This document shows, one piece after another, positions 440 through 5,577 of a stretch of 11,342 nt of DNA. Below the pieces are notes generated by a model. The model was not told the origin of the DNA, did no database searches, and saw only the letters and a program-made list of their open reading frames with translations. The DNA comes from Chloroflexota bacterium (GTDB lineage: Bacteria; Chloroflexota; Anaerolineae; B4-G1; SLSP01): contig JAAZNO010000029.1 in NCBI GenBank assembly GCA_012798275.1, forward strand, positions 1-11,342, given 5' to 3'. Position numbers and translations under genes: made by a program. The stretch's first letter is position 1. The number at the start of each line of letters is the position of its first letter.

Positions 440-489
440 GCTGCCCTCCTCGGAAAAATAGAGATCAGTGAACCGTGAGTAGAGAGTTG
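440..489 (-). repeat. Repeated leader, copy 1 (upstream of cohesin-like gene)
   Basis: Read on the minus strand this 5' region carries ACTCACG, GTTCACT and GATCTCT in 7-base steps, then ATTTTTCCGAGGAGG and the ATG at 439. The same order (heptads, ATTTTCCGAGGAG, start codon) precedes the CPBP protease gene at 4191 and several short ORFs here. It supplies the Shine-Dalgarno sequence of this gene. I see no convincing -35/-10 pair in it. Confidence 0.6.
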
Positions 490-500
490 TTGCAGCCCGC

Positions 501-552: not shown

Positions 553-650
553 AAACAGCGCGCTTCAGCGCGGTTGGCTCGTGTCAGGCTGGGGATTCCA
601 TCCCCAGCCGACCCATGAACCGTCACAGCCTCTGCTCACAACTCACATTT
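553..650. repeat. Hairpin-rich direct repeat, copy 1
   Basis: This is an ungapped direct repeat of 767-864 (offset 214) with about 10 differences in 98 positions counted by eye. It contains CGCGC-TTCA-GCGCG (559-572) and a perfect 10-bp stem, GGCTGGGGAT paired with ATCCCCAGCC, around TCC (587-609). It then runs into the heptad-like stretch ending in CTCACAACTCACATTT. The stems are conserved exactly between copies, while most differences fall beyond the second stem. Confidence 0.75.
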
Positions 651-696
651 GCATCCGCGGGGGTGTGCCGCAGGGACATGTCAACTCCTCGGAAAA
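623..696 (-). repeat. Leader/small-ORF unit, copy A (embedded 18-codon ORF at 623-679)
   Basis: On the minus strand ATTTTCCGAGGAG is followed by TTGAC and an ATG at 679-677. A short frame (MSLRHTPADANVSCEQRL) stops at 623. The first 35 bases from the ATG match the short ORF at 3778 at 32 positions. After GCAAATGT the copy enters the GTGAGTTGTGAGCAG heptad region. A strong ribosome site and ATG are present, but the frame is tiny and differs after the shared part, so I annotate a repeat rather than a gene. Confidence 0.5.
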
Positions 697-701
697 TGGC
701 C

Positions 702-764: not shown

Positions 765-914
765 TCAAACACCGCGCTTCAGCGCGGTTGGCTCGTGCCA
801 GGCTGGGGATTCCATCCCCAGCCGACCCGTGAGCCGTCGCCATCGCTGCTCACGACTCACATTTTCATTCTTGGATGATGTGCACCAGCACATGGCGTCT
901 CCTCGGAAAATAAG
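765..914 (-). repeat. Leader/small-ORF unit, copy B (embedded 42-codon ORF at 765-893)
   Basis: On the minus strand CTTATTTTCCGAGGAG leads to an ATG at 893-891. The 21 bases 911-891 are identical to 4173-4193, the leader and start codon of the CPBP gene. The frame begins MCWCTSSKNENVSREQR and runs through the heptad hairpin and the hairpin repeat, ending ESPAWHEPTALKRGV before TGA at 765-767. Because its second half only translates the hairpin repeat, a conserved protein is doubtful. A longer in-frame start at 1061 would read through low-complexity octamers and is not credible. Confidence 0.5.
767..864. repeat. Hairpin-rich direct repeat, copy 2
   Basis: This is the second copy of 553-650. 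ACCGCGC (771-777) pairs with GCGCGGT (782-788) around TTCA. The 10-bp stem GGCTGGGGAT with ATCCCCAGCC spans 801-823. A third hairpin, CGTGAGC (828-834) with GCTCACG (848-854), belongs to the heptad region. The first two hairpins of the series (501-547) are not recognisable before this copy. Confidence 0.75.
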
Positions 915-3433: not shown

Positions 3434-3547
3434 GGCGACGAGGACCAGCGTGCCGCGACACCCGGAGACCAGACCTTACCGTTGCTGCCTTCCGGCCCTG
3501 GCGGGGTTCGGAAGGTTCCGCCGCGCAGCCACCAATCCTCGGCGCCC
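3434..3547 (-). ncRNA. ffs: Signal recognition particle RNA, small bacterial type (4.5S)
   Basis: This RNA pairs with the Ffh protein to target nascent membrane proteins. The minus strand contains the hallmark GNAR-loop region GGGCC-GGAA-GGCAGCAACGG (around 3485-3505) with CCGAACCCCGCC on its 5' side. The basal helix closes well: CGAGGATTGG (3541-3532) pairs with CTGGTCCTCG (3448-3439) at all ten positions including G-T pairs. It is extended by GGCG (3546-3543) with CGCC (3437-3434). The size, about 110 nt, fits the short form without an Alu domain. Exact ends are uncertain; the promoter suggests a primary 5' end near 3580, with about 30 bases possibly removed by processing. Confidence 0.93.
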
Positions 3548-3614: not shown

Positions 3615-3677
3615 GCGGGGAGGTCATCCTTCGATCGATTCGGGTCATGGCGTTGGCGTATTTCCCGCCCAGAAAAC

Positions 3678-3706
3678 TTGACTCTCAAACAATTGGGTTC
3701 TATAAT
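3678..3706 (+). promoter_or_regulatory. Near-consensus sigma-70-type promoter facing the small ORF and CPBP gene
   Basis: TTGACT (3678-3683), a 17-base spacer and a perfect TATAAT (3701-3706) make this the best promoter in the window. Initiation is expected near 3713, giving a leader of about 65 bases before the ATG at 3778. The next substantial gene (4191) is nearly 480 bases away, across an insertion. Confidence 0.85.
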
Positions 3707-3727
3707 GGGCAGTGGAATCGGTTCATC

Positions 3728-3777
3728 CTACTCACGGAGCGTTAAGCGACCGTTCAGTTTTCCGCAGAGGAGTTAAC
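3728..3777 (+). repeat. Repeated leader, copy 2 (diverged)
   Basis: CTACTCACGGAG is followed, after a segment unlike the other copies, by TTTTCCGCAGAGGAG and five bases to the ATG at 3778. It matches the leader at 440-489 at both ends. The ribosome site AGAGGAG at 3766-3772 is strong. Confidence 0.5.
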
Positions 3778-3882
3778 ATGTTCCTGCGGCACGCCACCGC
3801 GGATGCAAATGTAATGTGCGGTAATTGTTCAGTCTGGCCTCAGGTAGCCCGACGGCGATGGATAAACCTTTGTGAGCTGTAG
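3778..3882 (+). CDS. Short ORF, 34 codons, in leader/small-ORF unit copy C (probably interrupted)
   Basis: An ATG lies 5 bases after AGAGGAG and about 65 bases downstream of a near-consensus promoter, so this frame is probably transcribed and could be translated. The peptide begins MFLRHATADANV and ends INLCEL; it has two Cys in CGNC and a later Cys. The first 35 bases match the short ORF at 679 (minus) at 32 positions. From about codon 15 the frame runs into the 304-bp insertion, so its C-terminal half is probably not original. I recognise no family. It may be a leader peptide, a remnant, or simply a repeat that happens to contain a start signal. Confidence 0.3.
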   Translation: MFLRHATADANVMCGNCSVWPQVARRRWINLCEL

Positions 3883-3900
3883 CTTTTGCCCCTCCCCCAG

Positions 3901-3938
3901 CCCCCTCCCCAACGGCGCCTGCGCCGTTGGGGAGGGGG
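3901..3938. repeat. Perfect 18-bp hairpin a
   Basis: The left arm CCCCCTCCCCAACGGCGC (3901-3918) is fully complementary to 3921-3938, with only CT between them (an effective 4-base loop). It is followed on the plus strand by an A-rich linker. It has no T-tract on either strand and so is not a normal terminator. Confidence 0.85.
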
Positions 3939-3988
3939 AGAAAAAATAAGGGGTTTTGCAGGCGGGCTACGCCCGCCTGCAAAACCCC
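3939..3988 (-). terminator. Perfect 18-bp hairpin b, terminator-like on the minus strand
   Basis: GGGGTTTTGCAGGCGGGC (3950-3967) is fully complementary to 3971-3988 around TAC. On the minus strand the stem is followed by TTATTTTTTC (3949-3940), the form of an intrinsic terminator. No minus-strand gene lies upstream, so it would act only on antisense or element-derived transcripts. Confidence 0.6.
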
Positions 3989-4035
3989 ACAAAAAAAATT
4001 CCCCTTCCCCCCGCGCAAGGCGCGGGGGGAAGGGG
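3989..4035 (-). terminator. Perfect 16-bp hairpin c, terminator-like on the minus strand
   Basis: CCCCTTCCCCCCGCGC (4001-4016) is fully complementary to 4020-4035 around AAG. On the minus strand the stem is followed by AATTTTTTTT (4000-3991), a textbook U-tract. With hairpin b it forms a double terminator facing away from the CPBP gene. Confidence 0.65.
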
Positions 4036-4125
4036 CCAGGGAATAGGGGGCAAGAATTGATTCTCAATCTTCAGCAGTCGCCATGAAACCTTGCATTTTT
4101 TAGCCAATGGCTGAACAGTTACCAT

Positions 4126-4185
4126 GTGAATCGTGACTACGACAGCTCTCGACTCACGACTCACTGCTCTCTATTTTCCGAGGAG
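4126..4185 (+). repeat. Repeated leader, copy 3 (upstream of CPBP gene)
   Basis: GTGAATCGTGA (4126-4136) can pair with TCACGACTCAC (4154-4164) with one mismatch. CTCGACTCACGACTCACTG shows 7-base periodicity, and CTATTTTCCGAGGAG ends in the ribosome site of the gene at 4191. Without gaps, 46 of 60 positions match 5518-5577. Its last part is identical to the leader at 911-894 on the minus strand. Confidence 0.65.
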
Positions 4186-4190
4186 ACGCC

Positions 4191-5045
4191 ATGAAGTCTT
4201 CGATCTTATCTTTGCTGAAACGACACGCGCTCGTTACATTCTTTGCCCTGGTGTTCCTCATCAGCTGGATCCCCTGGTACACCGGCGGAAGCGGCTTTAT
4301 CGTCTACGGCCCGTCGCTGGCCTGCTTGATCATGGTCGCAGTCGTGGACGGCAAGAAAGGCCTCCTTGACTTGCTTCAACGGGCGGTACGCTGGCGGGTA
4401 GGCCTCGTCTGGTGGGTCGTCACTCTATTTCTGCCGGCCCTCTTTTGCCTTGCCGGCATAGGCGTCCATCTTCTCGCCGGCGGGGATCTGCCGGCATTTA
4501 CATTTTTCAGGCAGGAATGGTACCTGGCGCCCGTCTTCTTTGTCCTCATGTTGGTGGATGGTCCATTGGAAGAGTTTGGCTGGCGCGGATTTGCCCTGCC
4601 AAAACTCCAGGAGAAATGGAGCCCTTTGATTGCCAGCTTCATCATCGGCGCCCTCTGGGGCATATGGCACCTGCCGGAGTTCCTGCGGCCGGGTTCCCCT
4701 CAGTACCCGATGGGAATAGGGTTTCTGCCCCTGTTTGTGGCTGTTGAGATCACCAACTCAATATTGATGACGTGGCTGTACAACAAGACCCAAGGGAGCC
4801 TGTTGCTCGGCGGCTTCATGGCTCATAACGCTCTCAACTTCTGGCCTAATGTGCTGCTAACTGAAATTACGATGACGGGAATCCTTCGCGGCGAGGCGTT
4901 CCCAGCGCCTGATATGAGGCTTTTCATATTGGAAGGGGTGGTCGCTACACTGGTAGCGATTCTCCTCGCGATCGTGACCAAAGGCCGGCTCGGACTTCCC
5001 TCTTGCCAAGTGTCCCAAATTGCATATAATAGTACTCAGGCATGA
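4191..5045 (+). CDS. CPBP-family intramembrane metalloprotease (CAAX/Abi type)
   Basis: This is a polytopic membrane protein of 284 residues with about seven to eight hydrophobic segments. It carries the three family motifs: EEFGWRGF at 127-134 (the EExxxR signature, E127, E128, R132), WGIWHLPEF with H160, and MAHNALNF with H212 and N216. These residues form the metal site of type II CAAX prenyl proteases and related bacterial CPBP proteins. Bacterial members cleave or protect against peptides in some systems, but substrate and role here are unknown. The ATG follows GAGGAG by 5 bases inside a repeated leader. Transcription may come from the promoter at 3678 across the insertion. Base composition looks less GC-rich than mutS2 or rsmA, which with flanking repeats hints at transfer, not proof. 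fmdB follows 21 bases downstream. Confidence 0.92.
   Translation: MKSSILSLLKRHALVTFFALVFLISWIPWYTGGSGFIVYGPSLACLIMVAVVDGKKGLLDLLQRAVRWRVGLVWWVVTLFLPALFCLAGIGVHLLAGGDLPAFTFFRQEWYLAPVFFVLMLVDGPLEEFGWRGFALPKLQEKWSPLIASFIIGALWGIWHLPEFLRPGSPQYPMGIGFLPLFVAVEITNSILMTWLYNKTQGSLLLGGFMAHNALNFWPNVLLTEITMTGILRGEAFPAPDMRLFILEGVVATLVAILLAIVTKGRLGLPSCQVSQIAYNSTQA
5003..5030 (+). promoter_or_regulatory. Promoter for fmdB-like gene, inside the CPBP gene end
   Basis: TTGCCA (5003-5008, 5 of 6), a 16-base spacer and a perfect TATAAT (5025-5030) predict a start near 5037, about 30 bases before the ATG at 5067. It would let this gene be expressed apart from the CPBP gene. Confidence 0.7.
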
Positions 5046-5443: not shown

Positions 5444-5514
5444 GGACGCCAACGCCGCCTCTCTCTGGAGATGCCCGGCGCTGGCGCGCACGCCCCGCAA
5501 GCATAAGCATGCAG

Positions 5515-5577
5515 GCCGTGAGCCAAGACTCCGACGGCTCTCTGCTCACGGCTCACTGACTTCTATTTTCGGCGGAG
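5515..5577 (+). repeat. Repeated leader, copy 4 (orphan, between fmdB and mutS2)
   Basis: GCCGTGAGC (5515-5523) pairs perfectly with GCTCACGGC (5544-5552). CTCTCTGCTCACGGCTCACTG shows the heptad pattern, and TTCTATTTTCGGCGGAG ends the copy at 5577. It matches 4126-4185 at 46 of 60 positions, yet no ATG or gene follows on this strand, since the mutS2 3' end begins at 5584. Confidence 0.6.

What the first reader, a model, noticed from the sequence alone, without database searches (positions are those of the whole stretch)
3728..4193. Dispersed leader/small-ORF unit with a strong promoter, split by an insertion
Three places (696-612 minus, 914-826 minus, 3757-4164 plus) share the same order: TTTTCCG(A)GGAG, about five bases, ATG, roughly 30 bases, AAATGTGAGTCGTGA, then a hairpin made of inverted heptads. 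Copies A and C match at 32 of 35 bases from the ATG, and both encode a peptide containing ADANV. A repeat that carries its own ribosome site, start codon and short frame, and in one case sits under a TTGACT-N17-TATAAT promoter, is unlike a plain REP or MITE. It could be a family of regulatory leaders, a small-peptide gene family, or a mobile expression cassette.
Basis: partly seen in the sequence, partly recalled or inferred. Interest (0 to 1): 0.7.

Follow-up and report, generated by a model that had tools for sequence, protein, structure and literature searches.

The report
Mobile leader cassettes carrying ribosome-binding sites
An uncultured bacterium carries around a hundred copies of a short, mobile-looking DNA cassette that usually sits at the ribosome-binding site of an ordinary gene, brings a replacement site with it, and is often exchanged for a different cassette in its sister species.

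Summary
The window is a contig of a draft genome close to a public Anaerolineae MAG. A, B and C/D belong to a dispersed family: at least 123 model matches in this genome, 94 in its sister species, 0-1 in three congeners. A unit runs from just 3' of a flank usually ending in AG to ...TATTTTCCGAGGAG: a ~40-nt left cap (ATG five bases behind the old SD...GAAAATG), a body of heptads, and a right cap that is itself a Shine-Dalgarno. Right ends not followed by another cap meet a gene start in 40 of 49 T1 and 27 of 32 T2 units; random positions do so at 21%. Relatives show empty sites at the native SD. Between the sister species the SD-ATG spacer is kept while the body upstream changes. The window's C/D is one unit split by a nested 300-bp MITE-like element. 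The mini-ORF shows little coding constraint. Best explanation: non-autonomous mobile leader cassettes that insert 3' of GGAG and hand the gene a new SD, then exchange caps and bodies. The mobilising enzyme is unknown; no Y1 transposase was found in either genome.

The parts
3678..3706 (+). sigma-70-type promoter-like site TTGACT-N17-TATAAT upstream of unit C/D; outside the repeat
3762..3772 (+). left flank CCGCAGAGGAG: SD-like sequence 3' of which the unit begins
3773..3812 (+). type-1 (T1) left cap: 5-nt spacer, ATG at 3778, ...GCGGATGCAAATGT (copy C of the finding)
3813..3820 (+). AATGTGCG: remnant of a T2 cap / left target copy of the nested element
3821..4122 (+). nested MITE-like element, ends GTAATTGTTCAG...CTGAACAGTTAC, GC-rich hairpins; splits the unit
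4126..4164 (+). heptad body, imperfect palindrome GTGAATCGTGA...CTCGACTCACGACTCAC
   Evidence: the 60-nt right part folds at z -1.20 only
4165..4185 (+). right cap TGCTCTCTATTTTCCGAGGAG, placed as Shine-Dalgarno of the CPBP gene
4191..5045 (+). downstream gene: CPBP/Rce1-like membrane protease (PF02517)
899..912 (-). right cap (TATTTTCCGAGGAG) of an ACGTG-type module upstream of copy B
860..898 (-). copy B: type-2 (T2) left cap ACGCCATGTGCTGGTGCACATCATCCAAGAATGAAAATG
685..698 (-). right cap (CATTTTCCGAGGAG) of unit B, followed directly by the left cap of A
646..684 (-). copy A: T1 left cap, ATG at 679
446..495 (-). end of unit A's body and right cap ...CTCACGGTTCACTGATCTCTATTTTTCCGAGGAG, placed as SD of the lipoprotein-like gene starting at 439 (minus)
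5467..5577 (+). GGAG flank (5467-5470) and degenerate T2 + heptad unit in the convergent fmdB/mutS2 gap; not in front of a gene

Best explanation
A family of short, non-autonomous mobile leader cassettes. A unit inserts immediately 3' of a (G)GAG-like sequence, most often the Shine-Dalgarno of a gene. Its left cap then places an ATG five bases behind the old SD, and its right end (TATTTTCCGAGGAG) gives the gene a new SD at about the original distance from the start codon, so the insertion is tolerated. Units insert into one another's SDs and form chains, carry passengers such as a nested MITE, gain and lose heptads in 7-nt steps, and exchange caps and bodies by recombination. Shown: dispersal, unit ends, placement, empty sites, turnover, mosaicism, 7-nt length steps. 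Inferred: that copying is transposition, that the new SD works, that exchange is by recombination. Unknown: the enzyme.
For: Matches: at least 123 in G000 and 94 in G001, 1 marginal in G002, 0 in G003 and G004 (150 candidates scored per genome, so more may exist; but a unit split by an insert, as in the window, counts twice). Right ends: of 64 T1 left caps in fetched G000/G001 loci, the first right cap (up to 3 mismatches) meets a gene start in 40, another module in 7, neither in 6; 8 run into a contig end, 3 have none within 480 nt. With next-cap and contig-end cases set aside: 40 of 49 T1 and 27 of 32 T2, against 161 of 585 for AGGAG outside caps and 757 of 3600 random positions; with ATG only at 4-11 nt, 31 of 49 and 21 of 32 against 48 of 585 and 136 of 3600. 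Flanks: of 32 T1 units whose left flank is not another right cap, 17 end in GAG and 24 in AG; of 22 T2 units, 12 and 14. Empty sites: ROK-like gene AAAAGGAG|GAATTATC-ATG in G001 against AAGGAG|unit|GAATTATT-ATG in G000; RidA-like CAGGAG|GCTATGAG in G001; MoaD-like ACAGAG|AATGGGAG in G001; AOR-like and g14 genes empty in G002-G004. Turnover: 27 orthologous leaders, last 14 nt 82% identical, -60 to -23 38%, CDS 96%; -60 to -23 in leaders with a cap mean 33%, median 29% (n=18), without a cap and non-coding mean 70%, median 89% (n=9). Same gene, different cap (methylmalonyl-CoA-mutase-like: T2 in G000, T1 in G001) or same cap, different body (L070/L201). Composite: 25 of 27 MITE left junctions lie at the same place inside T1/T2 units (my count). 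Length steps: 30 of 42 T1 and 12 of 16 T2 right-end distances of 75-135 nt share one residue modulo 7. Same right cap before gene starts in other genera: 17 of 21 sites in G010 and 26 of 30 in G012, random 16% and 20%.
Against: No mobiliser found: PF01797 has no match in G000 or G001, and elsewhere in the family it does not track the units. Left and right ends are not inverted repeats of each other. A target duplication cannot be told from the unit's own GAGGAG end. g14's left flank lacks a full SD. The window copy at 5467-5577 and others are not at gene starts; in a small sample of contigs only 2 of 7 caps were. In one search the share of caps before an ORF of 80 aa or more (75 of 143, next-cap sites included) was no higher than for the reversed motif (6 of 12); one search is the better control. 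No covariation supports the left-cap hairpin. All data are draft MAGs.
Confidence: 0.62

Rival explanations
1. Leader shuffling without transposition: the units spread among gene leaders only by gene conversion or template switching between short shared caps (GAAAATG and TATTTTC.GAGGAG).
For: Cap and body exchange at orthologous genes; the T1-AATGT-T2 junction shared by several long copies; no mobiliser found.
Against: Units occur at native SDs that lack both caps in the sister species or congeners (ROK-, RidA-, MoaD- and AOR-like genes), where there is little homology to recombine with; one orphan unit in a gene-free gap.
Confidence: 0.22
2. A family of cis-regulatory leaders (attenuator, riboswitch or leader-peptide control) kept by selection.
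For: Placement before start codons; some units fold better than shuffles as single-stranded DNA (z -4.51, -3.99, -2.73, -2.57 and -0.30 for 5 full units); ATG spaced from an SD.
Against: No Rfam match at gathering score in the window except SRP RNA; unrelated downstream genes; bodies differ between many orthologues; RNAalifold finds none of 18 pairs with changes on both sides and left-cap stems pair no better than shuffled.
Confidence: 0.08
3. A small-peptide gene family (MFLRHTTADENVSCEL-like).
For: ATG and SD spacing; 19 of 41 G000 T1 copies share a 16-codon frame; mild excess of synonymous changes in all four sets, strongest in G000 T2 (40 of 127 against 27.5 expected).
Against: No codon-position bias in T1; ATG missing in 10 of 41 T1 and 12 of 31 T2 copies of G000; left caps of other genera have other sequences.
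Confidence: 0.05
4. An assembly or binning artefact.
For: Contigs are short and several copies lie near contig ends; N-gaps produced false duplications in G001.
Against: Many copies lie inside contigs next to intact genes; a second MAG (G001, identical to JAGPHL01 in the three records compared) has the same family.
Confidence: 0.03

Closest known systems
MITEs and enterobacterial RU/ERIC repeats (PMC2759123, abstract and outline seen)
   Same: Small mobile intergenic repeats of 103-168 bp that contain reading frames.
   Different: The unit here has no terminal inverted repeats, ends in an SD and lies directly against start codons.
Pneumococcal BOX/RUP/SPRITE (PMC3049150, passages seen)
   Same: Small repeats that cluster and insert in one another; large BOX elements can encode ORFs.
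   Different: No SD-to-SD organisation in the passages I saw.
REP/BIME/REPIN with RAYT (PMC3733652 and PMC3116915, search listing only)
   Same: High-copy palindromic intergenic repeats.
   Different: Longer, modular, SD-proximal; no Y1 transposase found in G000 or G001.
IS200/IS605-type non-autonomous elements (recalled)
   Same: Insertion just 3' of a short target, asymmetric ends, right end resembling the target.
   Different: No Y1 transposase found; hairpin requirement not supported by covariation.
Small variable segments of bacterial species (PMC2884548, passages seen)
   Same: Segments of 20-500 bp, often upstream of genes, that differ between strains.
   Different: Here one defined family with fixed ends at the SD.

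Membership tests
MITE (DDE-mobilised) | terminal inverted repeats | tested here: not met
   By reading the ends: T1 starts TTGACATG, T2 ACGCCATG; the right end reversed starts CTCCTCGG. Only an internal GAAAAT/ATTTTC pair.
MITE (DDE-mobilised) | target-site duplication | tested here: inconclusive
   GAG on both sides, but GAGGAG may belong to the unit.
MITE (DDE-mobilised) | autonomous element with the same ends | not tested
   Only the Y1 family was searched for.
IS200/IS605-derived element | insertion 3' of a fixed short target | tested here: inconclusive
   Flank ends in GAG at 17 of 32 (T1) and 12 of 22 (T2) unique flanks, in AG at 24 and 14: a preference, not a fixed target.
IS200/IS605-derived element | Y1 transposase in the genome | tested here: not met
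   No PF01797 match in G000 or G001; MAGs 89 and 93% complete.
IS200/IS605-derived element | conserved subterminal hairpins | tested here: inconclusive
   Left-cap hairpins fold but show no covariation.
REP/REPIN | GTAG/CGTC-tagged 20-40 bp palindrome | tested here: not met
   By reading: short units are mostly about 100-130 nt with GAG/GAGGAG ends; definition from a search listing.
Known RNA leader (Rfam) | covariance-model match | tested here: not met
   Window only, gathering score: SRP RNA at 3440-3537 is the one match.
Small-protein gene family | purifying selection on codons | tested here: inconclusive
   No codon-position bias in T1 and frequent loss of ATG, but a mild synonymous excess, strongest in T2.

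The most novel reading that the evidence does not exclude
A class of mobile element adapted to the Shine-Dalgarno: it uses GGAG as target, turns the host SD into the SD of its own mini-ORF, and restores translation of the gene with the SD at its right end. Together with rapid body exchange this rewrites translation leaders of about a hundred genes between sister species, in several genera of one Anaerolineae family.
Probability: 0.35. Interest if true: 0.8.

Novelty: new variant of a known kind. Interest (0 to 1): 0.6.

Why it matters
Small bacterial repeats are mostly seen as passengers between genes. Here a repeat family is placed so as to supply the ribosome-binding site of many ordinary genes and differs between sister species, so it would be a direct source of expression divergence and a natural set of swap experiments. 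It would also show how a mobile element can sit at translation starts without harm. Six completed searches of the open-access library listed no paper whose title or abstract start describes SD-targeted, SD-restoring repeats (some searches listed 20 of 60, 20 of 128 and 10 of 14 papers); most subscription journals are not in it.

Tried and rejected
Left-cap hairpin as a conserved structure: paired fraction 0.792 against 0.786 shuffled for T1 (60 distinct sequences) and 0.789 against 0.783 for T2 (49), so no support. A pairing constraint between GAAAAT and ATTTTC: by eye, variants on one side were not matched on the other; dropped, not counted. Y1 transposase as mobiliser: no match in G000, G001, G003, G005, G008, G011; matches in G002, G004, G007, G010, G012, G013, G016, G017, G018, G021, G022; in the eleven of sixteen fetched Y1 loci that I scanned, only L347 (G010) held a right cap, about 1 kb from the gene, and none had a flanking pair of caps. 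N-terminal gene duplications suggested (C28, C287) are N-gap assembly artefacts. A sample of contigs gave 4 caps in 95 kb of G000, 3 in 120 kb of G001 and 0 in 198 kb of G002; 2 of these 7 preceded a gene start; the gene caller was crude, so I use it for density only. Viral contigs: one 18-base match, with no unit around it; plasmids and phages: no match. Selection on the mini-peptide: see the rival; not supported, not excluded.

Rows dropped before counts: 53 G000 genes were tried and 27 kept (a G001 orthologue of at least 85% identity with 60 nt of N-free upstream was required). In one search, only loci already fetched were used, so controls are few (9). In one search, cases followed by a next left cap, cases at a contig end and cases without a right cap were set aside (49 of 64 T1 and 32 of 52 T2 kept). 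Copies are related by descent, so P values overstate. Loci were mostly fetched because they hold units, so shares are of units, not of genes.

Full report
WHAT THE WINDOW IS. The window is contig C332 of an unnamed 3.06-Mb, 724-contig draft genome (G000). Its sister G001 appears to be the public MAG Gw_SlDig_bin_283 (JAGPHL01, 'Anaerolineae bacterium'): the three records L058-L060 match G001 loci at 100% and G000 loci at about 93-96% over longer stretches. Genes identified by Pfam in the window are RsmA/KsgA, a G5/3D-domain protein, a CPBP-family membrane protease, an FmdB-like zinc ribbon, MutS2, a CvpA-like protein and a glucose/sorbosone dehydrogenase; Rfam gives SRP RNA. Names of genes outside the window (ROK, RidA, MoaD, AOR, methylmalonyl-CoA mutase, gyrA, argS, RNase J and so on) and 'lipoprotein' are my recognition of the translations, not tested by a call.

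THE OBSERVATION. The family is genome-wide. The motif TTTTCCGAGGAG-N3-13-ATG has 45 matches at 40 distinct sites in G000 against 1 for the reversed pattern. The C core alone has 30 BLAST places. A covariance model built from 15 short copies has 123 matches in G000 and 94 in G001, 1 weak match in G002 and none in G003 and G004. Only 150 candidates per genome were scored, so more may exist; on the other hand a split unit counts twice. In 60 genomes searched with a consensus, only G000 and G001 match.

ANATOMY. A unit begins just 3' of a flank that usually ends in AG, most often GAG. The T1 left cap reads TTGACATGTTCCTGCGGCACACCACCGCGGATGAAAATG; a second cap, T2, reads ACGCCATGTGCTGGCGCACATCATCCAAGCACGAAAATG. 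Then comes a body of heptads, often an imperfect palindrome (GTGAGYY...RGCTCAC). The right cap is CTCTATTTTCCGAGGAG. Five full units fold as single-stranded DNA with z from -4.51 to -0.30; the window's 60-nt right part has z -1.20. Right-end distances of 75-135 nt fall on one residue modulo 7 in 30 of 42 T1 and 12 of 16 T2 units. Other body types (ACGTGGGC, TTCGCTGA, TTACGCA and others) end in the same or a similar right cap.

PLACEMENT. Of 64 T1 left caps in fetched G000 and G001 loci, the first right cap is followed by a gene start in 40, by another left cap or module in 7, by neither in 6, by a contig end in 4; 4 run into a contig end before a right cap and 3 have none within 480 nt. For 52 T2 caps the numbers are 27, 7, 5, 3, 6 and 4. 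With next left caps and contig ends set aside, 40 of 49 T1 and 27 of 32 T2 right ends meet a start codon 3-18 nt downstream that opens a long frame, against 161 of 585 AGGAG outside caps and 757 of 3600 random positions in the same loci; for ATG alone at 4-11 nt it is 31 of 49 and 21 of 32 against 48 of 585 and 136 of 3600. An earlier, looser count gave 75 of 143 cap-like sites before a frame of at least 80 aa and 6 of 12 for the reversed motif; many of those 143 are followed by another left cap. In the whole genome, 28 of 42 exact TATTTTCNGAGGAG sites have an ATG 4-9 nt downstream (my counts; about nine of these ATGs look like those of a following cap), where about 4 would be expected from base frequencies. 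There are exceptions: the window's own unit at 5467-5577 lies after a GGAG between two convergent genes, which suggests that GGAG is the target and gene starts are where insertion is tolerated.

EMPTY SITES. Congeners and the sister species show leaders without a unit. ROK-like gene: G001 ...AAAAGGAG|GAATTATC-ATG; G000 ...AAGGAG|unit|GAATTATT-ATG. RidA-like: G001 ...CAGGAG|GCTATGAG-ATG; G000 ...GAGGAG|GCTAGAG-ATG. MoaD-like: G001 ...CCAGAAGAGAGTACAGAG|AATGGGAG, G000 ...CCAGGAGTGTAGAG|unit...TTTTCTGAGGAG|GATGGGAG. AOR-like and g14 genes are without a unit in G002-G004. Against the sister species the sequence between SD and ATG is nearly preserved; against congeners less so (AOR-like: AACACT against ACCCCCT). 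The MoaD-like case suggests that the right GAGGAG comes with the unit, though a GAG duplication fits equally well. g14's left flank (AATGAG) lacks the full native SD.

TURNOVER AND MOSAICISM. For 27 orthologous G000/G001 leaders, the first 60 nt of the gene are 96% identical, the last 14 nt before it 82%, and -60 to -23 only 38%; 6 pairs have the same body type, 11 different types and 10 have one or both leaders unclassified or empty (types by a simple motif count). Among fetched loci, leaders without a cap and with non-coding upstream DNA have mean 70%, median 89% at -60 to -23 (n=9, three of them low), against mean 33%, median 29% with a cap (n=18). At the methylmalonyl-CoA-mutase-like gene the left cap is T2 in G000 and T1 in G001. 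At a TPR-like gene (L070/L201) the two genomes share a T1 cap with the same private changes but have different bodies. An element with ends GTAAYTGTTCAG...CTGAACAGTTAC lies at the same place inside T1/T2 units at 25 of 27 left junctions (counted from the listing; one is from L059, a JAGPHL01 record), so whole composites seem to have been multiplied. A non-nested copy (L287) has CCTTGCAT on both sides, an apparent 8-bp duplication; GTAA ends with 8-bp duplications recall the IS66 group (recalled, not tested).

SPREAD IN THE FAMILY. TATTTTCCGAGGAG with at most 1 mismatch occurs 73 times in G000, 75 in G001, 54 in G012 and 34 in G010, two other genera, and 0-5 times in the other 21 of 25 genomes; the reversed control has 0-3 per genome. 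The motif TATTTTCNGAGGAG-N4-9-ATG is found 28, 30, 35, 22 and 13 times in G000, G001, G012, G010 and G017, and 0-4 times in the other 19 of 24 family genomes, with 0 for the reversed control in all 24 (a few matches overlap). In G010 17 of 21 and in G012 26 of 30 sampled sites precede a gene start, against 16% and 20% of random positions (with a slightly stricter rule: 17 of 22 and 25 of 30). Their left caps have other sequences but many also lead to ATGAAAAT (by eye). The spread is patchy: three congeners of the window's genome have 0-1.

MECHANISM. I take the units to be non-autonomous mobile leader cassettes that tolerate insertion at SDs because they bring an SD. The mini-ORF behind the old SD shows no codon-position bias in T1 and often lacks ATG, but synonymous changes are mildly in excess in all four sets, most in G000 T2, so weak constraint cannot be excluded. 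The mobiliser is unknown: no Y1 transposase (PF01797) in G000 or G001, and no correlation elsewhere; other transposase families were not searched. Spread by recombination alone is the main rival; both probably act, since cap and body exchange is seen.

NOVELTY. As small dispersed repeats they are of a known kind. The SD-to-SD organisation is what I did not find described in the papers listed by my searches. Of the papers cited, I saw passages of PMC3049150 and PMC2884548, the abstract and outline of PMC2759123, and PMC3733652 and PMC3116915 only in search listings.

Noticed in passing
3620-5045: The CPBP gene with its promoter and leader is absent from the orthologous place in G004, where SRP RNA is followed at once by the fmdB promoter, and in G002, where about 230 other bases lie between; the last ~16 codons of the CPBP frame lie in the region conserved with those genomes.
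   Followed up: partly
3821-4122: MITE-like element with GC-rich hairpins and GTAA ends; many matches in G001 and an apparent 8-bp duplication at a non-nested copy (L287). Possibly IS66-like (recalled).
   Followed up: partly
about 496-614 and 715-828: A further repeat (GGCTGGGGATGGAATCCCCAGCC, CAACCGCGCTGAAGCGCG hairpin...TTCGTGTTCATTCGGGGCC) is nested in the bodies of units A and B and recurs in other loci.
   Followed up: no
L250-L279 (G012): In another genus the same right cap ends bodies of CACGAAGGACACAAAG and CACGCAAAGACGC...TTTGCGTGA type: other wording, same place before start codons.
   Followed up: partly
L227, L229 (G001): N-runs in G001 scaffolds separate near-identical gene starts and mimic tandem duplication.
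   Followed up: yes
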